Source: Isoalcanivorax indicus (GTDB lineage: Bacteria; Pseudomonadota; Gammaproteobacteria; Pseudomonadales; Alcanivoracaceae). From it: a stretch of 64,000 bases of DNA. Numbering within the stretch: position 1 is the first letter of the stretch; every line of letters begins with the position of its first letter. The translations under genes and the position numbers were made by a program. Below, piece by piece: positions 8,470 through 52,477 of the stretch. Under the pieces are notes generated by a model that did no database searches, had not been told where the DNA came from, and saw only the letters and a list, made by a program, of their open reading frames with translations. The stretch is from contig NZ_QGMP01000001.1 in NCBI RefSeq assembly GCF_003259185.1, positions 434,001-498,000 of the forward strand. The letters are read 5' to 3'.

Positions 8470-9393
8470 ATGGATGAATTCGCCCTCATCAATCGTTTCT
8501 TCCGCACGGCGGCAAACGCCGCCGGGCCCGGCGTACGTCTGGGGCCCGGCGACGATGCCGCCCTTCTGACGCCGACCCCCGGATGCGACCTGGTGATGTC
8601 CATGGACACCCTGGTCGCAGACCGCCATTTTCCCGCGGACATGCCCGCTGCCGATGTGGGCTGGCGCAGTCTGGCCGTCAACCTGTCTGACCTCGCGGCC
8701 ATGGGCGCCCGTGCACGCTGGGCATTGCTGAGCCTGAGTCTGCCGGAAGCCGATGCGGACTGGGTGGGGGGGTTTGCCCGGGGTTTTGCCAGCCTGGCCG
8801 CGTCGGTTGGCTGCACGCTGGTCGGCGGAGATACGGTGCGTGGCCCGCTGTCGATCACGGTGCAGGTCACTGGCGAGGTGCCGACGGGCCAGGCCCTGCT
8901 GCGCAGCGGCGCCCGAGCGGGCCAGCGGTTGTGTGTCGGCGGTGTGCCGGGTGAGGCAGCAGCCGGTCTGGCCGCCTGGCAGCGCGGTGAGCGCGACGGG
9001 CCGCTGGTGGCGCGCCTGGCGCGACCCCGGCCGCAGCTGGCGCTCGGCGAGCAATTGCGTGGCGTGGCCAGCGCCTGTATTGATATCTCCGATGGCCTGC
9101 TGGCGGATCTGGGGCACTTGCTGGCGGAAAGTGCCGTGCCTGGTGCCGACGTACATCTGCCGGCCCTGCCGCTTTCGACAGCCCTGGCCGCGGCCGGGGA
9201 TGACGCCTCGCGCCAGGCATGGCAACTGGCGGGGGGGGATGACTACCTGTTGCTGTTTGCCCTGCCTGCGGAGCAGGTATTGCCTGCGGACTGCCATGTG
9301 ATTGGCGCCTTCTCGGCCGAGCCGGGTGTGCGTGTGCTGGATGCGAGCGGGCAGCCGGTGCCCGTGGCCCGGCATGGCTGGAATCATTTTTAA
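8470..9393 (+). CDS. thiL: Thiamine-monophosphate kinase
   Basis: ATP-dependent phosphorylation of thiamine monophosphate to thiamine diphosphate. The 307-residue product belongs to the PurM/ThiL fold: N-terminal MDEFALINRFF, the Gly-rich GPGDDAALL metal/ATP loop, MDTLVADRHFP, and CIDISDGLLADLGHL in the second half. It has GAGG upstream and is followed 12 bp later by pgpA. The nusB-thiL-pgpA order is conserved in gammaproteobacteria. Confidence 0.96.
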   Translation: MDEFALINRFFRTAANAAGPGVRLGPGDDAALLTPTPGCDLVMSMDTLVADRHFPADMPAADVGWRSLAVNLSDLAAMGARARWALLSLSLPEADADWVGGFARGFASLAASVGCTLVGGDTVRGPLSITVQVTGEVPTGQALLRSGARAGQRLCVGGVPGEAAAGLAAWQRGERDGPLVARLARPRPQLALGEQLRGVASACIDISDGLLADLGHLLAESAVPGADVHLPALPLSTALAAAGDDASRQAWQLAGGDDYLLLFALPAEQVLPADCHVIGAFSAEPGVRVLDASGQPVPVARHGWNHF

Positions 9394-9405
9394 AGGAGCA
9401 CGAGC

Positions 9406-9906
9406 ATGACCCCTCAGCCCCCCGCCCCGCGGCCCGATATGACCAATCCGGTGCACTTTCTCGCCTTCGGTTTTGGTAGCGGTCTGGCGCCCAAAGCGCC
9501 AGGCACCTTCGGGACCCTGGCCGCCATGCCGCTGTGGTATCTGCTCACCTTCCTGCCGCTGTGGGGGTTCCTGCTGGCGACCCTTGTGGTGATTGCGGTC
9601 GGGCCCTGGTTATGTGGGCAGACCTCACGGGATCTCGGGGTGCATGATCATGGCGGTATCGTCTGGGATGAATTTGCCGGCCTGCTGGTGACGTTCATTC
9701 CTCTGGCGATCCTGGGGGCCGCGCCGACGCTGGCTGTGGCGGTGGTCGGGTTTGCCCTGTTCCGGGTCTTTGATGTGCTCAAGCCCTGGCCGATCGGCTG
9801 GCTCGACCAGCGCGTGCATGGCGGCACCGGCATCATGGTCGATGACCTGCTGGCGGGGGTTTACGCCGGTATTCTGCTGTACGTCGCCTTGCCATGGCTG
9901 GTCTGA
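9406..9906 (+). CDS. pgpA: Phosphatidylglycerophosphatase A
   Basis: Inner-membrane enzyme that dephosphorylates phosphatidylglycerophosphate to phosphatidylglycerol. Residues about 11-166 match the PgpA family: GFGSGLAPKAPGTFGTLAA near the N-terminus, HDHGGIVWDEFAGLL with the acidic active-site cluster, and FRVFDVLKPWPIGWLD followed by GIMVDDLLAG. Three to four hydrophobic segments are visible. A good AAGGAG site precedes the ATG. Last gene of the nrdR-rib-nus-thiL-pgpA block. Confidence 0.95.
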   Translation: MTPQPPAPRPDMTNPVHFLAFGFGSGLAPKAPGTFGTLAAMPLWYLLTFLPLWGFLLATLVVIAVGPWLCGQTSRDLGVHDHGGIVWDEFAGLLVTFIPLAILGAAPTLAVAVVGFALFRVFDVLKPWPIGWLDQRVHGGTGIMVDDLLAGVYAGILLYVALPWLV

Positions 9907-10018
9907 GCGGGGCGGGGGTATACTGACGACAACTTCCCGGGGACCAGCGCGGCCCTTGGCACGAGATGTTCCGGGGCTGAGCTTGTTTGCCGGGGTTGTC
10001 CCCGCCTGGAACCGGTTG

Positions 10019-11290
10019 ATGGACGCAGACCCGACGCCTATTGCGGAACACACGCTTGCCCTTCAGGAGCATTCTGCGGGGCATACGGCCCGTGCCCGGC
10101 AGGTGCAGCAACTCCTGCGGGCTGGCGGGCTCCGGTTGCGCTTTCCTGCGGTGCTGGAGAGCGAGTTCCGCGCCCATCACGATGATGCGGCCCTGCGCAT
10201 CTTTCGCGCCAGCCTGACCTGGCTGGCGTTGCTGTATCTGGCCATGGCCGTTTCGGCCCTGACCGTGTTGTCCGGTTCGCATACCGGTGTCTGGCCCCTC
10301 ATTTTTGCCGGTTTTGCCGTCATCATGGTGATGGCCTGGGGACTGGCCTCGACCCCCCTGATGCGTAGACGCTACCAGCGCACCGTGACGACGCTGGCGG
10401 CGCTGATGATGATACTGGCCACCATCAACCCGATGCTGGAGCCGGATGAGGCGTTCCGGACCCTGCTGCACATCGGCACGGTCTTCGTGGTGGTGGTGGT
10501 CTATCTGGGGCTGAGCCTGCGCTTGCCCTATGCGTTGCTGGCGGGTTGGGGCGGCGGCTTGCCGCCACTGGGGCTGGCGGCATGGTTCGGGGCGCCCCTG
10601 GACTGGACGCTGGTGGTGCCCACCTATGTCGGCGCCAGCCTGCTGTGCATGGTGCTGTGCTTCCGTGATGAGCGGCAGCGGCGGCGGATGTTCCTGCAGG
10701 GGGAGCTGCTGCGCGAGGATCAGCGCCGTATCGAGACGCTGGCCCGCGAGCTGAGTCGTCAGGCGCTGGTGGATGGTTTGACGGGGCTGGCCAACCGGCG
10801 CCAGTTCGACCAGGCGCTCAAGCGCGAATGGGCCCGTGCCCAGCGTGAGCAGCAACCCCTGGCGCTGGTGTTTGCCGATATCGACTACTTCAAACCCTAT
10901 AATGATCTGCTGGGCCACCAGGAAGGCGACGATTGTCTGCGCGTGATGGCGGGTATCTTCCGTTCCCAGGCTCGCCGGGCCACGGATCTGGCGGCGCGCT
11001 ATGGCGGCGAGGAATTCGTGCTGCTGCTGCCGGGGGTGGACATGAACGGGGCCGTACAACGCGCAGAACAGCTGGCCGAGGCGGTGCGCCTGTGCCAGTT
11101 GCCGCACCCGCGTTCCGGTTGTGCGTCAGTGGTCACGCTGAGCATTGGTGTGTCGGTGATGATCCCGCAGGCTGACGATGAAAGCCCGGAGGAGCTGGTG
11201 CGCCGCGCCGATGCGGCCATGTACCGGGCCAAGGCCGAGGGCCGCAATCGGGTGGTGCAGGCGGATCAGGAGCCGATGGCGGGGGCGTGA
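10019..11290 (+). CDS. Membrane-anchored diguanylate cyclase (GGDEF)
   Basis: Predicted to make c-di-GMP from two GTP. About 423 residues from the ATG at 10019, which is the first start after the end of pgpA in this frame; its ribosome site is weak. An N-terminal region (about 55-225) holds five or six membrane helices of no recognised sensor family. The GGDEF domain occupies about 250-415, with [10 protein letters not shown], the metal segment [12 protein letters not shown] and signature YGGEEF. RATD sits five residues before the signature, so the inhibitory I-site is intact. Its last 25 bp overlap the 3' end of dxs on the opposite strand. Confidence 0.9.
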
Positions 11291-44983: not shown

Positions 44984-45817
44984 CTACATGTCGCCGGTCA
45001 GGCTGCGGGGGTCGAGTCGCTCCTGATACCAGTTCAGGCGCCAGCACAGATGCGGGCCCGTGGCGCGGCCTGTGGCGCCGACCTTGCCGATGATATCCCC
45101 CTGCGCCACGACGTCCCCTTCGGCCACCAGAATCTCGCTCATATGGAGATAGGTTGAAGACACACCCAGGCCATGATCGATGATCAGGGTGCCGCCAGAG
45201 TAGAACATATCGTCATGCACCAGTGTGACCTGGCCGCTGGCGGGTGCCTGGATGGGTGTGCCGGTGGGGGCGGCGATATCGACACCGTAATGTGGCCGAC
45301 GTGGCTCGCCATTGAAGATGCGCTGGCTGCCGTACACGCCGGTAATGCGGCCGCGTACCGGCCAGATGAAATCCTCGCGGAAGCCGGTGAGTGTGCTGTC
45401 GGTGTTGCGCGCCGCGGTGACCTGCCCGGCTTCCCGGCTGATCCGTGCCAGTGCCTCGGCGGGTGGCGTCACGGTACGTTGCGGCACCCCCTCGATACGC
45501 TGGATATCCCATTGGCGTGCCGCCAGCGTGATCTCGTAGGTGCTGCTGTCGTCGTTCCGGCGCAGGTGCAGGGAGGCAGGGCCTTCATCGTCCCGGCCAA
45601 AGCCGAAGACGAAATATCCGTCCCCGGTGACGGTAAGTCGCCTGCCATCCAGGCGCACTTCGGTGCCGGGGATCGTCTCACCGATCAGCAGTGCGCCGGG
45701 CGCGGGTTCGCCGCGCAAGGCCTTGAGCAGACCTCCGGGCGCCTCACTGGCCTGGGCAGGAGACAGTAACCAGGCCAGCAGCAACAGTGAGAGGGCAGGC
45801 AAGCGGGTGCTTTTCAT
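44984..45817 (-). CDS. M23 family metallopeptidase
   Basis: 277-residue secreted peptidoglycan endopeptidase-like protein with a signal peptide (cleavage after A-Q-A). N-terminal beta domain about 40-105; M23/LytM domain about 150-265. Active-site residues: H176 and D180 (HYGVD), H225 (YLHMS) and H256 (GPHLCW). The last zinc ligand, normally the second His of HxH, is Cys258. Its ATG overlaps the stop of the upstream diguanylate cyclase gene by 4 bp (ATGA), indicating coupling. May be active with a Cys ligand or a regulatory M23; see findings. Confidence 0.85.
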   Translation of the reverse strand: MKSTRLPALSLLLLAWLLSPAQASEAPGGLLKALRGEPAPGALLIGETIPGTEVRLDGRRLTVTGDGYFVFGFGRDDEGPASLHLRRNDDSSTYEITLAARQWDIQRIEGVPQRTVTPPAEALARISREAGQVTAARNTDSTLTGFREDFIWPVRGRITGVYGSQRIFNGEPRRPHYGVDIAAPTGTPIQAPASGQVTLVHDDMFYSGGTLIIDHGLGVSSTYLHMSEILVAEGDVVAQGDIIGKVGATGRATGPHLCWRLNWYQERLDPRSLTGDM

Positions 45818-47058
45818 GATGTCATGACTCGCAGGGTGCCGTCGTCTTCCACGCAGGCGACGCAGTTGCGGCCTGCGCCCTTGGCCTGGTAGAGGGCCTG
45901 ATCGGCCTGATGAATGAGTTGTGCGCTGTCAGTGGCGCCAGCGGTCGTGCAGGCGACGCCGACACTGATGGTGACGACGGCGCGCGGTGACTTGCTGTGC
46001 GGCAGGCCCAGGCGCTCCACCCGTGAGCGCATGCGTTCGGCAAACACGAGGGCATCGCGCAGCCGTGTGCCGCCCAGCACGACAACAAATTCCTCGCCGC
46101 CGTAGCGGGCCACAAAGTCGGTAGCCCGTTGCACCATGGTCTTGGGAACATCGGCCACCTGGCGCAGGGTATCGTCGCCAGCCTGGTGGCCATAGGTGTC
46201 GTTGTATTGCTTGAAGTAGTCGATGTCGAACAGCAGTACCGCAATGCTGTCCGGCGCGCCGCGGGCCTGATGGCGCATCTTGTGCAGCAGGCTGTCGAGG
46301 CGCTGGTCCATGCCGCGTCGGTTGATGGTGCCGGTCAGGCCGTCCTCGGTCGCCTGACTTTCCAGCGACAGGTTGGCGGCCCGCAGTTCGCTGCGATGCA
46401 GGTTGAGCACCCGGTCAGACAAAAACAGCCGCCGTTCGAGGCGTTCGAAGAAGTACTGGCCAAACAGGCTCATGATGGCGCCGCTGAGGGTGAACGACCA
46501 GATCACCAGGGATTCGGCGTGACTGAAGCGACTGAAGCCGAACAGCGCCACGGCCAGGGCCACAAGAATGACCAGGCTGGTGGGCAGGGCCCAGTGAAGC
46601 TGGATACGAAACAGGCTGCCCATCAGCAGAATGGCCAGAAAACAGATATAGAAGTAGGTGTTTGCTAACGCATGATCCACGGTCAGGCCGAGGAAGATAT
46701 GCACGCCGGCCATGGTCAGCGCCATGACGGCGACAGCCGGTTGCACAAAGGGCCGCCAGGGCGCGCCCATCCGCGTCAGGGCCCATACCGCTACCGTGGC
46801 CATGATGGCCAGCAGGCGCGGCCGCCAGGTCGCTGCGGTGGCCTGAGGGTCGACCAGATGTTCCACGGCGAAGGCCACCAGATACACAGTGATCATCAGG
46901 ACAGTGGCCCCGGGGATCAGCCGCGCACAGGTGTCCCGGAACTGCTGGCCAAAGGCGACCTCCAGGCTGTCCGGCAGGCGCAGATGCCAGGCGAGCGACA
47001 GGTCCCGGCCAGACGGCAATGTCTGGGAATCCGGAGACGGTGCGTGCTGAGTGTTCAT
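45814..47058 (-). CDS. Membrane-anchored diguanylate cyclase (GGDEF)
   Basis: 414-residue c-di-GMP synthase. Six hydrophobic helices occupy about 45-200, then GGDEF at about 235-400: DGLTGTINRRG, FDIDYFKQYND, signature YGGEEF. RATD five residues upstream of the signature is an intact inhibitory site. The ATG at 47058 is preferred over the adjacent TTG. It heads an operon with the M23 peptidase (4-bp overlap) and dedA. Confidence 0.9.
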   Translation of the reverse strand: MNTQHAPSPDSQTLPSGRDLSLAWHLRLPDSLEVAFGQQFRDTCARLIPGATVLMITVYLVAFAVEHLVDPQATAATWRPRLLAIMATVAVWALTRMGAPWRPFVQPAVAVMALTMAGVHIFLGLTVDHALANTYFYICFLAILLMGSLFRIQLHWALPTSLVILVALAVALFGFSRFSHAESLVIWSFTLSGAIMSLFGQYFFERLERRLFLSDRVLNLHRSELRAANLSLESQATEDGLTGTINRRGMDQRLDSLLHKMRHQARGAPDSIAVLLFDIDYFKQYNDTYGHQAGDDTLRQVADVPKTMVQRATDFVARYGGEEFVVVLGGTRLRDALVFAERMRSRVERLGLPHSKSPRAVVTISVGVACTTAGATDSAQLIHQADQALYQAKGAGRNCVACVEDDGTLRVMTS

Positions 47059-47224
47059 CAATGCCCCTGACCCTGAATGAAAGCCGACCGTGCCCGGCCG
47101 GTATTCCCTTGAATATCAATAGACTACCACCGTTTCATGGAAAAGACACAGGGGGGTTCCCGGCCCGTCGACGGGGCGAACGCGATGAAGTTAAGGCTGC
47201 TTTAATATTTTTTATGATGGCACT

Positions 47225-47289
47225 TTGACATCATTTTTTTAAAAAAATAAATATTTTTCATAAAGCATTTATGCCGATAAAAGCGGCAT
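47225..47289 (+). promoter_or_regulatory. AT-rich promoter region of the autoinducer synthase gene
   Basis: The 318 bp between the diguanylate cyclase and the synthase gene hold no ORF of note; 47200-47270 is extremely AT-rich, unlike the rest of the window. A perfect -35 TTGACA (47225-47230) is followed after 17 bp of A/T tract by TAAATA (47248-47253). Downstream, ATGCCG-N7-CGGCAT (47271-47289) forms a small leader hairpin. GGAG precedes the start codon. Regulation is not evident. Confidence 0.55.
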
Positions 47290-47376: not shown

Positions 47377-48630
47377 ATGAACATTAAAGTGGGTCTTGTT
47401 CAGGATGACGTTAACAGAAAAAAATATCCTGAATACCTCAGTGGCCGTATAGATGCTTTCTATAGTGAGCGCTGGGGAGCCTTGTGGGGTGGCAAGCATC
47501 TGCTGCGCGGGTTGATTCCCGGTGACAGCGCCATACAGATGATCAGCAATGATTATCTTGATGTCGCCAATCATCCGGAGGTCATCGCGGCACAGATCGA
47601 TTGCCTGAAAAACGGACCGCAGAGTCTGATGATGTCGGGTTCGCTATTGCGTGGTGATACACCACAGCGCCGCTTCGAAAAACGGATGGCAGATTATTGC
47701 GGGTATCAGTCCGCGATACTGTGTCAATCCGGCTATGCGGCGAATGTCGGCCTGATACAGAGTGTCGTGCAGGAAGGTACGCCGGTTTATATGGATATGA
47801 ACGCCCACGCTTCATTGTGGGAAGGCGTACGCAGTGGTGGCGCAGAAGTGAAGCCGTTCCGGCATAACGACATGCAGCATCTGGAGCGGCAGATGGCGCG
47901 CTATGGTCAGGGTCTGGTGTGTGTTGACTCAATCTACAGCACCATGGGCAGTGTCTGCGATCTGATGGCGGTCATAACCCTGGCAGAAAAATATCAGTGC
48001 ATGATACTGGTGGATGAATCCCATTCGCTGGGAACACATGGTCCAGCGGGTGCCGGACTTGTCAGCGAAATGGGGCTGCAGGATCGGGTTCACTTTGTCA
48101 CGGCCAGTCTTGCCAAGGCATTCTGCGGGCGAGCTGGCCTGATCCTGTGCCCGAAGCAGTTCGCCGATTACTTCTGGATGACGTCGCTGCCAGCGATATT
48201 CAGCTCATGTCTGCTGCCCAGCGAAATTGCCGGGCTTGAGGCAACCATGGATATCATTATTCGTGATGACTGGCGTCGTGAGGCACTGCATGCCAATGCG
48301 GATTACCTGCGTCATGGCCTGGCTGAACTGGGTTACAACGTGACGGCCAGTGGTTCGCAGATTATCTCGCTTGAGGCGGGTCCTGAAGATGCGACGTTAA
48401 GACTGCGCGAAGCGCTGGAGGAGCGGGATGTGTTTGGCTCCGTATTCTGCGCACCTGCGACGGCGAAAAGCCGTTCCATGATCCGGTTTAGCGTCAATGC
48501 CGGGTTGAGCAAGGCGGCGCTGGACAGGGTGCTTGGTGTATGTCGTGACATCCGCGATGAGGTGGGCATGGCTTCCTGGCCATCCACGTTGCGCTTGCAG
48601 CGGGATCAGCGCCGGTTCAATCACGATTGA
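47377..48630 (+). CDS. cqsA: Alpha-hydroxyketone autoinducer synthase, CqsA/LqsA-like
   Basis: PLP-dependent acyl-CoA transferase that makes CAI-1 or LAI-1-type signals from an acyl-CoA and an aminobutyrate/SAM-derived amine. 417 residues. Fold and motifs of the alpha-oxoamine synthase group: SNDYLDVANHPEV, LCQSGYAANVGLIQ, VDESHSLGTHGPAG with D213/H216, and TASLAKAFCGRAG with PLP-Lys K247, close to the CqsA segment TASLSKAFAGRAG. The gene faces convergent lqsR/lqsS-like genes, which supports a quorum-sensing function over biotin or glycine metabolism (BioF/Kbl). Signal chain length cannot be read from sequence. Confidence 0.9.
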   Translation: MNIKVGLVQDDVNRKKYPEYLSGRIDAFYSERWGALWGGKHLLRGLIPGDSAIQMISNDYLDVANHPEVIAAQIDCLKNGPQSLMMSGSLLRGDTPQRRFEKRMADYCGYQSAILCQSGYAANVGLIQSVVQEGTPVYMDMNAHASLWEGVRSGGAEVKPFRHNDMQHLERQMARYGQGLVCVDSIYSTMGSVCDLMAVITLAEKYQCMILVDESHSLGTHGPAGAGLVSEMGLQDRVHFVTASLAKAFCGRAGLILCPKQFADYFWMTSLPAIFSSCLLPSEIAGLEATMDIIIRDDWRREALHANADYLRHGLAELGYNVTASGSQIISLEAGPEDATLRLREALEERDVFGSVFCAPATAKSRSMIRFSVNAGLSKAALDRVLGVCRDIRDEVGMASWPSTLRLQRDQRRFNHD

Positions 48631-48646
48631 AGAAGGAGGGAGTATG

Positions 48647-48669
48647 GAGCGGGGCATGATGCCCCGCTC
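48647..48669. terminator. Hairpin between convergent cqsA and lqsR
   Basis: GAGCGGGGCA (48647-48656), loop TGA, TGCCCCGCTC (48660-48669): a 10-bp perfect stem filling the gap between the two stop codons. No T-tract on either side, so termination may be factor-assisted. Confidence 0.6.
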
Positions 48670-49680
48670 TCACTCTGTATCCAGACTTTCGAGATAATTG
48701 ATATAGCTGGATGTTGCACTGTCGTATTCAATGTCGGCCGGCGGGCTGTCAACGAGCGCACAGTACCAGGTCTGCACCCCATCTATCCGTATCGCATCAT
48801 GAACATGTTCATTCCACGGGAATATCTCGCCGTCGTCATAGTCTTCCGGCGTGGACCATAGCCAGGGCAGGGCCTTGCCATGGGTTACGCGACGAATGAG
48901 TGATGCCGGTGCATTATGGCGTTTCAGAGTAAAAAGGTGGCGCTCAAGGTCGCTGGCGTTGTTGATGACCAGGCGATACAGGTGGCCCTGCATGCTGACC
49001 AGCAGGAAACCATGTGGATCCTCGACATAGTAGTATTCGACGATATTTCTTGATGACGTCAACGTGAAGAAATACTCGATAAAGGCCGGATCATAGATGA
49101 AGTCGGGTGGTTCCAGTGCCAGCGTGTTCTGGATCATCATGGATACTTCCTGGAAGTATCGGCGCTGAAGGTCCTGAATGGTGCTGTTGATGCGCTGGGT
49201 GATATGTGGATCATTCTTGAGCATGAACTGGTCAATAATGCCCTCATTGAAGGCGCGCACGGCGATCTTTTCGTCCGCCACGCCGGTAAGCAGTATCTTC
49301 TTGATGCGTGTGCCGCGGAGCCGCTCACAGAACTGAACGCCATTCATTTCCGGCATGTCATAGTCCACCACCACAACCGAGATATCGCGGAAACGTTCGG
49401 CATTGCTGATTTCCTGTTCGATCAGAGTGAGATCCAGACGAATTACCCGGTCAGCCTGCCCGGGGGAGGGCCGGGTATAGTAGGAAAAGCAGCGTTGATC
49501 GAGCGTTATGCGTGGGCTGCGGCTTTTTATCATCTCAAGGCACTGGACTGGCGAGGAGTAGAAAAGACAGGCCAGGGACTCATCGAGTTGCAGGCTGAAG
49601 TTCTCCAGAAAACGCTGATTATCATCCAGCATGACGATGGTTGTGGGGTGAAAATAGGGCTGTATCTGCATGCTCATCAT
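48670..49680 (-). CDS. lqsR: Response regulator, LqsR-like
   Basis: 336-residue regulator. Receiver: acidic pair D19-D20 (MLDDNQ), phospho-Asp D106 (VVDYDMPEMNG), Thr in LLTGVAD, Lys in FMLKND. The spacing from D20 to D106 is about 42 residues longer than in CheY, owing to an insert at about 45-95. The remaining about 170 residues (about 165-336) contain no helix-turn-helix and do not match common output domains; this is the LqsR layout from Legionella. Its ATG overlaps the lqsS-like stop by 4 bp (ATGA), so sensor and regulator are coupled. Two further ATGs follow closely. Confidence 0.8.
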   Translation of the reverse strand: MMSMQIQPYFHPTTIVMLDDNQRFLENFSLQLDESLACLFYSSPVQCLEMIKSRSPRITLDQRCFSYYTRPSPGQADRVIRLDLTLIEQEISNAERFRDISVVVVDYDMPEMNGVQFCERLRGTRIKKILLTGVADEKIAVRAFNEGIIDQFMLKNDPHITQRINSTIQDLQRRYFQEVSMMIQNTLALEPPDFIYDPAFIEYFFTLTSSRNIVEYYYVEDPHGFLLVSMQGHLYRLVINNASDLERHLFTLKRHNAPASLIRRVTHGKALPWLWSTPEDYDDGEIFPWNEHVHDAIRIDGVQTWYCALVDSPPADIEYDSATSSYINYLESLDTE

Positions 49681-50987
49681 GAAGTTGCCTGGGGAAAAGA
49701 CATTTCAAACAGGGTGTATTCGTTGAGTCGGGAGTCGCAGCGGATGCGCCCGTTCAGGCTTTCCATGACCAGCTTGCAGAATGAAAGTCCAAGGCCGCTG
49801 CCCTGATCGATGGTTTTGGAGCTGAAGAAGTAGTCGAAAACATGTTTGACCCGTGACGGGTCGATGCCGGGCCCGGTGTCCAGAACGCTCAGACGGTTGA
49901 ACTGCTTTCCGGGAAGCGTGGTAATCCGTATGGTGCCCTGTCCGGAATTGAGCACGCTGTGCAGGGCGTTCTTGACCAGATTGAAGACCACATGCATTAC
50001 CAGCAGGTCAGAGCCGAAATAGACGAAGTCTTCGCCGCGGTCCCAGGACACCAGGTCGCGTTCATGCTCGGATTTGAACGGGAAGCGTTGCAGGGCGCGT
50101 TCGATGGTATCGTTCATCGAGTGCAGCGCAAAGCTGTCTTTCTTGATGGTGGTCTGATTGGCGCTGAGTAACAGCATGTCAATGATCGTGTTGGCATAGT
50201 CGATCTCCTCCTCGATCCGGTCTGACGCTTCACGCAGTCGCTCCAGTCGAGTGGCTCTTATGCTGCGTACGGGAAGCCCTGAAAGCATGGCTTGCTGATG
50301 GGCGTCAACGAGGTGGGGAAGATAATGAGACAGGCCGGAGGTGGCCGCCTTCATGCCCAGCAGAGGTGTGCGTAGCTCATGAGCAATGTTGCGGCCGACG
50401 GCAGCATGGGCATTGAGCTTTTCCTCTTTCACGAGTTGCGCATTGTAGTTGAAGATGCTGCCGCCAATGATGACAAAGGCGTAAATCGGCAATTGCTGAA
50501 TATACAGGGTTGCCAGCGCTACGGTGTCGGCGTCCGATGTCATGAGAAAGGCTGCCCAGCCCAGCAGAGAGCCAAGCAGGGCCACAAGGATGACCAGTAA
50601 CCAGTCATACAGCGCGAGGACAAGAAAGAACAGTGCTGCCATGGTCGACATACTCCATATCATGGAGAGATCGTTGCGCAGCAGCATGTAGGTAAAGAAG
50701 AAAGGCAGCGTATATAGCAGGAACAGTATCCAGTACGCCGGAAAGTACGGTGCCAGCTTCTTGGGCCATCGCCCATAGAGTAGCAAGGGTACGCAGATGA
50801 TCATGCCGATCAGCCGCAGGGGCAGGTTCTCGTACGCCTGCGGAAACAGATACAGCCAGACATAGTAATACAGCGGGAAGGTGATCACGCCGAGCACGCC
50901 GATCATTGGCGCGTTATAGCGAGAGTAATGGATGCTCTCGTTCAGTGAACGCCGCAGTCGCTCTTTGACAATATGCAGGTAGCTCAA
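49677..50987 (-). CDS. lqsS: Membrane sensor histidine kinase, CqsS/LqsS-like
   Basis: 436-residue receptor kinase for alpha-hydroxyketone signals. Six membrane helices (about 27-175) carry CqsS-like residues: FPQAYENLPLR, LPFFFTYMLLRND and MIWSMS. HisKA with H203 (IAHELRTPLLG) and HATPase (NLVKNALHS, DTGPGIDPS, GSGLGLSFCKLV) follow. Unlike Vibrio CqsS there is no attached receiver; the LqsR-like protein takes its place. The predicted start is TTG 50987: similarity to CqsS begins before the first internal ATG (50906). 13 bp after the arc-like gene. Confidence 0.85.
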   Translation of the reverse strand: MSYLHIVKERLRRSLNESIHYSRYNAPMIGVLGVITFPLYYYVWLYLFPQAYENLPLRLIGMIICVPLLLYGRWPKKLAPYFPAYWILFLLYTLPFFFTYMLLRNDLSMIWSMSTMAALFFLVLALYDWLLVILVALLGSLLGWAAFLMTSDADTVALATLYIQQLPIYAFVIIGGSIFNYNAQLVKEEKLNAHAAVGRNIAHELRTPLLGMKAATSGLSHYLPHLVDAHQQAMLSGLPVRSIRATRLERLREASDRIEEEIDYANTIIDMLLLSANQTTIKKDSFALHSMNDTIERALQRFPFKSEHERDLVSWDRGEDFVYFGSDLLVMHVVFNLVKNALHSVLNSGQGTIRITTLPGKQFNRLSVLDTGPGIDPSRVKHVFDYFFSSKTIDQGSGLGLSFCKLVMESLNGRIRCDSRLNEYTLFEMSFPQATS

Positions 50988-51000
50988 CCGGCACCAGATC

Positions 51001-51336
51001 TCAGCGCAGAAGTTCCAGCAGGGCTCGCCGATGGGTCATGCTCATGGCGCGGAAGCGCTCCAGCAACTGGTCTTCCTGCGTAATGATCACGGGATCACCG
51101 CCTCCGCTCTGGGGGGCTTCGGCACTGACGGCGTAAAGGTGCGGCGCGGATTCTGCAACGCCCTCCACGTTCACGGTCAGCCCCAGGCTCTCTTCCAGAC
51201 GGGCAACGATCTCGGCGTTCATGCTTCGTTTATTGTATTTGGCGAGTTCGCAGATTCGACCGCGAATGCCTTTTGGCAAGCGCACGACGAATTTCTCGAC
51301 CTCCTGACGGTTTTCGGCAGCCGCTTTCTTGTCCAT
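51001..51336 (-). CDS. Arc-family ribbon-helix-helix DNA-binding protein
   Basis: 111-residue protein whose residues about 12-55 match Arc: EKFVVRLPKGIRGRICELAK, then NKRSMNAEIVARLEESL. The C-terminal half (about 60-111) is extra: Gly/Ala-rich, ending in a helix ERFRAMSMTHRRALLELLR. It starts the operon that continues with lqsS- and lqsR-like genes (13 bp and a 4-bp overlap), and could be a transcriptional output or an autoregulator of the signalling system. No partner of this kind is part of the described Legionella or Vibrio loci. Confidence 0.85.
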   Translation of the reverse strand: MDKKAAAENRQEVEKFVVRLPKGIRGRICELAKYNKRSMNAEIVARLEESLGLTVNVEGVAESAPHLYAVSAEAPQSGGGDPVIITQEDQLLERFRAMSMTHRRALLELLR

Positions 51337-51526: not shown

Positions 51527-52477
51527 ATGAATATTGGTCGCGTTGATCTCAACTTGTTGAAATATCTGGATGTTTTGCTCAGGGAGCTGAGTGTGACCCG
51601 GGCTGCTGATCAATTGGGTATCTCCCAGCCTGCGATGAGCAATGGGCTCAAGCGGCTGCGGGAGCTGTTCAATGACCCACTGCTGATCCGGACCTCGGGG
51701 GGAATGAACCCCACCGAGCGGGCGCTGGAGCTGCAGCCGCTGGTACGCCAGGTCCTGATGCAGACGGAAGCGATGCTGACGCCGGACGAAGCGTTTGTGC
51801 CGGAGGCCAGTCGGCGGGTATTCCGGATCATGACCAGTGACTATGCCGAGGCGACGCTGGTGCCGCACCTGGTGCGCCGTTTACGGGAAGATGCGCCCCA
51901 TGTAGTGCTGGACTTCGTCACGCCGTCGGATGTGAGCTACGCCGACATGGAGCAGGGCCGGGTGGACCTGGCGGTCAACCGCTTTAACGAGATCCCGCGT
52001 TCGTTCCATCAGGTCACCCTGTGGAAGGATTCGTTCTCCTGCCTGCTGAATCGCAGCAACCCGCTGGCGCGGGACTTCAATCTGGAGAGCTATCTGAGTG
52101 CGCAGCATATCTGGGTGTCAAAGACAGGCTTCGGGGTCGGGTTCGGCATGAATCCGGAGAAGCTGGGCGGGCTGGGCTGGATTGATCAGGCGTTGGCGCG
52201 CATCGGCAAGACCCGGAAGATCTCCATTTTTACGCGGCACTACCAGATGCCCGCCTTGCTGGCGATGAACAATGATCTGGTGGCCACGTTGCCCAGCCGG
52301 GTGGCGCGGATGCAGACGCAGAACCCGCGCCTGGCCATCAAGGACCCGCCGTTCGTGATCCCGCGCTTTGAGCTGAAAATGGCCTGGTCGCCGCTGCTGC
52401 ACCATAACCCGGCGCATCGCTGGTTGCGCCGGTTGATTCAGGAAGAGGCGGAAACCATTCTGCGCGAGGAGCCCTGA
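51527..52477 (+). CDS. LysR-family transcriptional regulator
   Basis: 316-residue regulator. N-terminal winged helix about 6-65: DLNLLKYLDVLLRELSVTRA, ADQLGISQPAMSNGLKRLRE; then a linker helix and a periplasmic-binding-fold effector domain (about 92-305). NodD/PcpR-type start. Target and ligand not predictable. Divergent from the Arc-like gene, which makes regulation of the quorum-sensing operon a possibility, but LysR genes often regulate divergent partners of unrelated function. Confidence 0.87.
   Translation: MNIGRVDLNLLKYLDVLLRELSVTRAADQLGISQPAMSNGLKRLRELFNDPLLIRTSGGMNPTERALELQPLVRQVLMQTEAMLTPDEAFVPEASRRVFRIMTSDYAEATLVPHLVRRLREDAPHVVLDFVTPSDVSYADMEQGRVDLAVNRFNEIPRSFHQVTLWKDSFSCLLNRSNPLARDFNLESYLSAQHIWVSKTGFGVGFGMNPEKLGGLGWIDQALARIGKTRKISIFTRHYQMPALLAMNNDLVATLPSRVARMQTQNPRLAIKDPPFVIPRFELKMAWSPLLHHNPAHRWLRRLIQEEAETILREEP

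What the first reader, a model, noticed from the sequence alone, without database searches (positions are those of the whole stretch)
47377..51336. Complete alpha-hydroxyketone (CAI-1/LAI-1) quorum-sensing module outside Vibrio and Legionella
One 4-kb segment encodes a CqsA/LqsA-type synthase (PLP-Lys K247), a CqsS/LqsS-type membrane kinase and an LqsR-type regulator. The kinase shares the CqsS sensor residues (PQ-YENL-LR, LPFFFT, ND-S-IW-MS) but lacks the fused receiver of CqsS, so the wiring is Legionella-like with a Vibrio-like sensor. The synthase faces the sensor operon convergently. The host otherwise looks like a marine hydrocarbon/lipid degrader.
Basis: partly seen in the sequence, partly recalled or inferred. 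Interest (0 to 1): 0.75.

Follow-up and report, generated by a model that had tools for sequence, protein, structure and literature searches.

The report
Alcanivorax quorum-sensing module beside biofilm switch
A marine oil-degrading bacterium carries a complete set of genes for making and sensing a Vibrio/Legionella-type chemical crowd signal, and the set sits exactly between two genes that probably control biofilm formation; such gene sets are already known in other bacteria, but this setting looks new.

Summary
47377-48630(+) is a CqsA/LqsA-type synthase (NCBIfam NF005526, 573 bits, cut-off 428). 49677-50987(-) is a CqsS/LqsS-type kinase without a fused receiver. 48670-49680(-) matches PDB 6sy9 (LqsR) end to end. 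The host is in the Alcanivorax family. The headline is not new: lqsA/lqsS/lqsR clusters outside Vibrio and Legionella have been in print at least since 2012 and are called widespread (PMC3376566, PMC3566124, PMC10653808). The "Vibrio-like sensor" holds for single residues, not for descent.

The module lies exactly between an AmrZ-like regulator gene, which heads the kinase-regulator operon, and a GGDEF (diguanylate cyclase) gene. In 19 of 22 family loci without the module these two are direct neighbours. The divergent synthase/cyclase promoter holds a palindrome like an AmrZ operator, one half-site imperfect; close matches number 24-29 in four related genomes, the window's included, and 0-5 in 50 others.

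Most likely this is an alpha-hydroxyketone circuit tied to c-di-GMP control of biofilm, with a C8-tailed signal forecast from one kinase residue. Signal, binding and wiring are inferred. It is a new member of a known kind.

The parts
45814..47061 (-). GGDEF (diguanylate cyclase) gene, divergent from the synthase; GGEEF at residue 321 with an RxxD five residues upstream
   Evidence: Pfam GGDEF E 1e-45, MASE8 under its cut-off; motif; next to the synthase in 12 of 12 long family loci and in the short contig L056
47062..47376 (.). Divergent intergenic region between the cyclase and synthase genes
47215..47233 (.). Palindrome TGATGGCACTTTGACATCA (one mismatch to TGATGGCANNNTGCCATCA), GGC-N5-GCC core with an imperfect right half, candidate AmrZ-type operator
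   Evidence: Core strong before the synthase in 5 of 7 genus loci (shuffle fraction at most 0.013); 24 such sites in the genome at up to 2 mismatches; half-site geometry of amrZ1 in PMC3325190
47377..48630 (+). CqsA/LqsA-type alpha-hydroxyketone autoinducer synthase, PLP lysine K247
   Evidence: NF005526 573 bits > 428; CqsA 3hqt/2wk8; tree
48670..49680 (-). LqsR-type response regulator, receiver D19/D20/D106/T132/K155
   Evidence: PDB 6sy9 end to end; the five receiver residues invariant in 17 sequences, positions checked
49677..50987 (-). CqsS/LqsS-type membrane histidine kinase, His203, no fused receiver; its end overlaps the regulator start by 4 bp
   Evidence: Pfam HisKA, HATPase_c; sensor alignment; hydropathy
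51001..51336 (-). AmrZ-like ribbon-helix-helix regulator, first gene of the putative kinase-regulator operon (13 bp before the kinase start)
   Evidence: PDB 3qoq AmrZ E 3e-10; only homologue in the genome at E<=0.01; K15/V17/R19 = AmrZ K18/V20/R22, kept in 24 of 24
51527..52477 (+). LysR-type regulator gene that marks the site in genomes with and without the module (flank, not part of the module)
   Evidence: Pfam; found in 22 of 23 family genomes without the synthase

Best explanation
This is an alpha-hydroxyketone quorum-sensing module of the LqsA/LqsS/LqsR kind, set into the amrZ-diguanylate cyclase locus of an Alcanivoracaceae bacterium. The synthase joins a medium-chain acyl-CoA to an amino donor (in Vibrio S-adenosylmethionine), giving an aminoketone that becomes a hydroxyketone. 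The six-helix kinase, with W111 and F179 at the head-group and chain-length positions, most likely prefers a C8-tailed, amino/enamino form (V. harveyi Ea-C8-CAI-1 type). It would pass phosphate from H203 to D106 of the LqsR-type regulator, and the signal would switch kinase activity to phosphatase activity, as proposed for CqsS. The AmrZ-like protein, expected to be co-transcribed with kinase and regulator, would bind the palindrome in the divergent synthase/cyclase promoter and so tie signal production to c-di-GMP and the choice between free-living and biofilm (oil-film) growth. Shown here: the genes, conserved catalytic and sensor residues, gene order, the site without the module, and the palindrome with its genome distribution. 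Inferred: the signal, its binding, phosphotransfer, AmrZ binding and the effect on c-di-GMP. The confidence given is for the AHK module and its LqsR-type wiring; the AmrZ/c-di-GMP tie alone I put near 0.3, as in the section on the most novel reading.
For: Family model over cut-off; CqsA as best structure; clade apart from 18 BioF/Kbl-like rows; PLP lysine and 6 of 9 acyl-pocket residues the same as V. cholerae CqsA. Regulator end to end with 6sy9. Kinase sensor residues W/S/F and F at the chain-length column, which falls on residue 175 in V. campbellii as published. Gene order cyclase-synthase-regulator-kinase-amrZ-LysR in 12 of 12 long family loci, the window included; cyclase next to amrZ in 19 of 22 loci without the module, seen at full length in 8 of 8 longer g3/g8 stretches L115-L122. 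AmrZ match and base contacts; palindrome with the GGC-N5-GCC geometry of amrZ1. LuxS not found in this genome, with 5 of 14 controls positive; no second sensor of this kind.
Against: No chemistry, binding or expression data. Three acyl-pocket residues differ from V. cholerae CqsA (V32L, F79L, F257M), and pocket residues do not predict chain length even between Vibrio species (PMC3285556, passages). The palindrome is weak or absent before the synthase in 7 of 12 carriers, and absent before the window's own amrZ gene (7 of 10 core matches, shuffle fraction 0.76). It is rich only in four genomes although the AmrZ base contacts are the same in all, so another regulator may bind it. By my rough gene of the 24 sites lie within genes, and several stand before genes with no clear biofilm role. 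In P. aeruginosa AmrZ represses cyclase gene adcA; the direction here is unknown.
Confidence: 0.8

Rival explanations
1. The AHK module is real, but its place between amrZ and the cyclase gene is a neutral accident of insertion or loss; signalling has no special link to AmrZ or c-di-GMP.
For: The family tree does not settle gain or loss. Outside the family, the RHH genes of three order relatives have no cyclase gene directly beside them (L129-L131), so the pair is not shown to be a functional unit elsewhere. The kinase-regulator genes may only borrow the amrZ promoter.
Against: Gene order is kept in 12 of 12 long carrier loci although synthases have diverged to 57% identity; a repeated palindrome stands in the shared synthase/cyclase promoter.
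Confidence: 0.35
2. The palindrome is the site of a different, unidentified regulator active in the four-genome clade; the AmrZ-like protein acts elsewhere.
For: 24-29 sites in G000, G001, G003, G005 but 2, 4, 4 in the three other genus genomes, which have the RHH gene with the same base contacts.
Against: The half-sites GGC-N5-GCC are those of amrZ1 (PMC3325190); cores of 9-10 of 10 also stand before the amrZ-like gene in 6 of 8 measured relatives without the module and in 3 of 12 carriers.
Confidence: 0.4
3. The synthase is an ordinary BioF/Kbl/serine-palmitoyltransferase-type enzyme, and the neighbouring two-component pair is unrelated.
For: Shared fold and PLP chemistry; bioF model 249 bits.
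Against: bioF score far under its cut-off of 426, NF005526 well over its own; 100/100 split from BioF/Kbl-like rows; the genome has a separate 30%-identical gene of that kind on contig C3 (kind judged by similarity only).
Confidence: 0.02

Closest known systems
Legionella LqsA/LqsS/LqsR (lqs) and Janthinobacterium JqsA/JqsS/JqsR
   Same: Synthase, kinase and a separate LqsR-type regulator in one cluster; in LqsS, as here, no fused receiver (PMC3376566 sections 8 part 1, 11, 12, 16; PMC3566124 passages)
   Different: Synthase convergent to a kinase-regulator operon headed by an AmrZ-like gene; no hdeD between; W at the position where LqsS has S111, F where LqsS has T175/L176 (LqsS residues as given in PMC3376566); no second kinase of this kind found
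Vibrio CqsA/CqsS
   Same: Synthase 45% identical to V. cholerae CqsA (172 of 382 columns); W104/S107/F162 equivalents; F at the chain-length position as in V. harveyi
   Different: No receiver fused to the kinase (436 aa against 681-691 aa ORFs in three Vibrio loci); an LqsR-type regulator instead
PhcX of Ralstonia (LqsR family)
   Same: LqsR-family regulator; the paper reports lqs clusters as widespread in Alpha-, Beta- and Gammaproteobacteria (PMC10653808, passages)
   Different: There uncoupled from lqsA/lqsS and tied to phc genes; here in place with both
AmrZ of Pseudomonas
   Same: RHH domain, three base-contact residues; similarity over residues 4-110 to the homologue in order relative L131
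   Different: Here heads an AHK sensor operon and lies near a cyclase gene

Membership tests
CqsA/LqsA alpha-hydroxyketone synthase | Passes the curated model NF005526 | tested here: met
   573.3 bits, cut-off 428
CqsA/LqsA alpha-hydroxyketone synthase | PLP lysine (CqsA K236) and separation from BioF/Kbl | tested here: met
   K247; 100/100 split
CqsA/LqsA alpha-hydroxyketone synthase | Makes CAI-1/LAI-1-type product | not testable with these tools
   needs expression and mass spectrometry
CqsS/LqsS sensor kinase | Six membrane helices, HisKA, HATPase | tested here: met
   HisKA and HATPase_c; hydrophobic stretches 25-49, 51-75, 78-105, 105-153 (long enough for two) and 155-186 (six helices is my reading of this simple hydropathy scan)
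CqsS/LqsS sensor kinase | Ligand-determining residues W104, S107, F162 of V. cholerae CqsS | tested here: met
   W111, S114, F171
CqsS (Vibrio hybrid kinase) proper | C-terminal fused receiver | tested here: not met
   No Response_reg match in the kinase
LqsR response regulator | End-to-end similarity to the solved LqsR, with phosphoacceptor D108 | tested here: met
   6sy9 residues 25-356, E 3e-65; D106 aligned. The PDB listing says only 'Response regulator'; that 6sy9 is L. pneumophila LqsR is recalled
LqsR response regulator | Phosphorylated by the cognate kinase | not testable with these tools
   biochemistry needed
lqs-type gene cluster | lqsA, lqsS and lqsR together | tested here: met
   12 of 12 long family loci, the window included
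AmrZ | RHH domain with K18/V20/R22 base contacts | tested here: met
   K15/V17/R19 (contacts from PMC3325190)
AmrZ | Binds GGC-N5-GCC operators, own promoter included | tested here: inconclusive
   Fitting palindromes in some relatives, not before the window's own gene

The most novel reading that the evidence does not exclude
In Alcanivoracaceae an alpha-hydroxyketone circuit is hard-wired into the amrZ-diguanylate cyclase locus: the AmrZ-like protein is made with the kinase and the LqsR-type regulator, acts on the shared synthase/cyclase promoter and, in one clade, on a regulon of about 25 sites, and so couples cell density to c-di-GMP and oil-film biofilm, with a C8-tailed signal of the V. 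harveyi kind.
Probability: 0.3. Interest if true: 0.65.

Novelty: new member of a known kind. Interest (0 to 1): 0.42.

Why it matters
Alcanivorax bacteria bloom on spilled oil and must stay at the oil-water surface; c-di-GMP is already implicated in that switch in A. borkumensis (PMC6440734). In the listings that I saw, no paper names Alcanivorax together with CqsA, LqsA or alpha-hydroxyketones (capped lists from an open-licence library). If the wiring holds, it gives a harmless, culturable system in which density sensing and c-di-GMP meet at one locus, with natural relatives without the module as controls. It also offers a way into an open question: what LqsR-type regulators do, whose output domain is described as resembling a degenerate cyclase without detected activity (PMC10653808).

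Tried and rejected
BioF/Kbl identity of the synthase: rejected by model scores and tree. The 18 outgroup rows are 25-31% identical homologues that I named BioF/Kbl-like without annotating each; they are 18 of the 26 such loci held (L015-L021, L025-L043), and the divergent row L069 is a long branch next to the outgroup. Vibrio descent of the sensor: not supported (deep branches open, long branches meet, three Vibrio kinases only). Gain or loss of the module: undecided. On a LysR+PTPS tree the 20 g3/g8 genomes without it form one clade (99/99), but the family's deep branches are unresolved, the four outgroup rows lack PTPS and are long. LuxI: none found, but the control rang in 0 of 14 genomes, so this says nothing. 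Rfam at gathering threshold: 0 matches in the window. Promoter scan: 1 found, 3.3 expected; terminator-like 6 found, 3.8 expected; uninformative. The loose published AmrZ motif (A/T-rich, GCC, A/T-rich) was too weak to scan; the amrZ1 half-sites were used instead. Gene calls around the palindromes come from a home-made codon score trained on the window, so "intergenic" there is approximate; the intervals were set by hand and some include coding sequence. The g6 genome G011 (short contig) is not in the host tree; only 8 of the 22 loci without the module were measured; G020 (64% complete) was left out of the sensor search.
Full report
What is there. The interval holds four genes, not three: synthase 47377-48630(+), regulator 48670-49680(-), kinase 49677-50987(-) and a 111-aa DNA-binding protein at 51001-51336(-). 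Kinase and regulator overlap by 4 bp, and 13 bp separate the 111-aa gene from the kinase start, so these three look like one operon facing the synthase. A GGDEF gene (45814-47061, -) is divergent from the synthase; a LysR-type gene (51527-52477, +) follows on the other side.

Synthase. It scores 573 bits on NF005526, alpha-hydroxyketone-type quorum-sensing autoinducer synthase (cut-off 428), and 249 on bioF (cut-off 426). The best solved structures are V. cholerae CqsA. The PLP lysine is K247 (CqsA K236); 172 of 382 aligned columns are identical. Of nine published acyl-pocket residues (PMC3285556, passages) six are the same and three differ, V32L, F79L and F257M. In a tree of 26 CqsA-like rows and 18 BioF/Kbl-like rows (my label, by similarity) the two sets split with 100/100 support, and the 13 family synthases are one clade, 100/94.

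Kinase. HisKA and HATPase_c, no receiver. The published ligand-determining residues W104, S107, F162 and C170 of V. cholerae CqsS (PMC3376566, sections 11 and 16) fall on W111, S114, F171 and F179. The chain-length column is checked by V. campbellii, where the F lies at residue 175 as printed for V. harveyi. F is there in 18 of 21 kinases and in 12 of 12 of the family; W in 20 of 21. V. cholerae C170F and wild-type V. harveyi receptors respond to 8-carbon and not to 10-carbon tails (PMC3285556, passages), so a C8 ligand is the best forecast. Against a plain Vibrio-like label: the gate residues are Y169/F171/G175 and not F/F/F, the motifs recur in part in non-Vibrio kinases, and the three Vibrio kinases are a separate clade.

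Regulator. It aligns over residues 5-336 with PDB 6sy9; that this entry is L. pneumophila LqsR is recalled, and fits the published D108 (PMC3376566). D19, D20, D106, T132 and K155 are invariant in 17 sequences. PMC10653808 (passages) reports that the LqsR output domain resembles the PleD cyclase domain, with a degenerate motif and no detected activity.

Host and spread. Of 22 loci returned from one scan of species genomes, three are close: Alcanivorax limicola and two Alcanivorax metagenome bins, 74-90% identical; the other 19 are 25-31% identical. Among 57 genomes searched, 13 carry the synthase at 57% identity or more: 7 of 7 of the window's genus group (window included), 6 of 29 others of the family, 0 of 21 of other families in the order; the further hits at E 1e-40 are 25-30% identical. 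In a class sample 8 of 369 genomes, the window's included, pass the family cut-off, and 0 of 14 control genomes.

The setting. In 12 of 12 long family loci, the window's included, the order is GGDEF gene, synthase, regulator, kinase, RHH gene, LysR gene, PTPS-like gene; a thirteenth, L056, is a 4.4-kb contig with the first three. Of the 23 family genomes without the synthase, 22 keep the LysR gene; the one without, G020, is 64% complete. In 19 of those 22 loci the RHH gene and the GGDEF gene are neighbours; three (L084, L087, L097) do not show both. Longer stretches confirm this in 8 of 8 g3/g8 loci (L115-L122), while in G017 (L123) the GGDEF gene is missing at the site, in G030 (L124) both are, and the G012 contig is short (L125). 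So the module sits precisely between two genes that are neighbours elsewhere. Whether it came in or was lost is open: the host tree leaves the deep branches unresolved, and RHH homologues turn up in only 3 of 18 genomes of other families, without a cyclase gene directly beside them.

The RHH protein. Its only strong solved relative is AmrZ of Pseudomonas (3qoq, E 3e-10); it is the only such gene in the genome at E 0.01. The AmrZ base contacts Lys18, Val20 and Arg22 (PMC3325190, passages) are K15, V17 and R19 and are kept in 24 of 24 relatives, with similarity reaching the C-terminal part. AmrZ is known to act on cyclase genes: in P. aeruginosa it represses adcA (PMC3946381, abstract and sections 8 and 11).

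The palindrome. The synthase/cyclase intergenic region carries TGATGGCACTTTGACATCA at 47215. Its core, TGGCA-N3-TGCCA, has the two GGC half-sites with a 5-bp linker found in the amrZ1 operator. In the window one half-site is imperfect; L023 and L053 have a perfect core. Before the synthase it is strong in 5 of 12 carriers (shuffle fraction at most 0.013), intermediate in one (L060, 0.03) and not above shuffles in six. Before the RHH gene the core is 9-10 of 10 in 3 of 12 carriers, not in the window, and in 6 of 8 measured relatives without the module; between RHH and GGDEF genes in those 8 the best is 7 of 10, as in shuffles. With up to 2 mismatches the full palindrome occurs 24, 29, 27 and 28 times in G000, G001, G003 and G005, and 0-5 times in the other 50 genomes; reversed control 0-2. 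The exact core alone occurs 24 times in G000 against 4 for the control. By my rough gene of the 24 full sites in G000 are intergenic and 10 lie within genes (the window site). Sites stand before a second GGDEF gene (L175), twice before a two-kinase operon (L161), and before genes of no evident biofilm role. It is therefore probably an operator of some regulator in this clade. AmrZ fits the geometry, but identical base contacts in genomes with few sites leave room for another protein.

How it most likely works. The synthase makes a medium-chain aminoketone or hydroxyketone; the kinase reads it and controls phosphorylation of the LqsR-type regulator; the AmrZ-like protein ties synthase and cyclase transcription together. 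c-di-GMP is linked to biofilm on hexadecane in A. borkumensis (PMC6440734, parts 1 and 2 of 3 of the text; the mutation there is in a GGDEF/EAL gene, by its domains not this one). In L. pneumophila LqsS is linked to c-di-GMP through LvbR and Hnox1 (PMC11237717, passages), so a link between such circuits and c-di-GMP has a precedent by another route. LuxS is not found in the genome while 5 of 14 controls are positive. With the sensor part of the kinase as query at E 1e-5, the window's genome has this one gene and 22 of the 23 relatives without the module, all that were searched, have none.

What is known already. PMC3376566 (sections 8 part 1, 11, 12, 16) names lqsA/lqsS homologues, some with lqsR, in Ralstonia, Nitrococcus, Burkholderia and Polaromonas. 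PMC3566124 (passages) shows jqsA/jqsS/jqsR in Janthinobacterium, with a deletion phenotype. PMC10653808 (passages) finds LqsR orthologues in 310 representative genomes, 87 of them Gammaproteobacteria, and calls the cluster widespread; Alcanivorax is not in its main text, and its supplements were not seen. Paper searches, listings only: 20 of 156 papers shown, 15 of 21, 20 of 121, 15 of 58, 3 of 3. None of those shown has Alcanivorax with CqsA, LqsA or alpha-hydroxyketone counts above zero; the 21 hold Alcanivorax and autoinducer and were not opened; one review on type VI secretion (PMC10482370, not opened) holds AmrZ and CqsS. So absence from print is likely but not shown.

Verdict. A real, complete and probably working AHK module, a new member of a known kind. 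The part worth following is its fixed place between an AmrZ-like gene and a cyclase gene.

Noticed in passing
G000 C1/C2/C3, e.g. L161:6503-6567, L175:2499, L188:5494, window 47215-47233: TGATGGCANNNTGCCATCA is an expanded operator-like palindrome (24-29 sites) in four closely related genomes, the window's included, and rare in 50 others; its regulator is not identified.
   Followed up: partly
L161:3210-6424 (G000 C2): Two such palindromes precede an apparent operon of a HisKA_7TM kinase and a receiver-HisKA-HATPase protein whose kinase part is 33% identical to the window's AHK kinase.
   Followed up: partly
L069 (G097 C13, about 8955-10163): A second, divergent CqsA-like gene (371 bits, under the NF005526 cut-off) in a genome that also has a full module; no kinase or regulator of this kind was matched in the 18 kb around it.
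   Followed up: no
L062 (G226): In another order-level lineage of the class, whose synthase is 57% identical to the window's, a large GGDEF protein (860 aa ORF) also flanks the AHK kinase gene, divergently.
   Followed up: no
L054 and L055, next to the module: A tandem second GGDEF gene (31% identical to the window's) stands beside the first in two genus relatives.
   Followed up: no
L180:2731-4131 (G000): A relative of the alkane uptake protein AupA (499 bits, under the cut-off of 840) lies about 219 bp from a two-mismatch palindrome.
   Followed up: no
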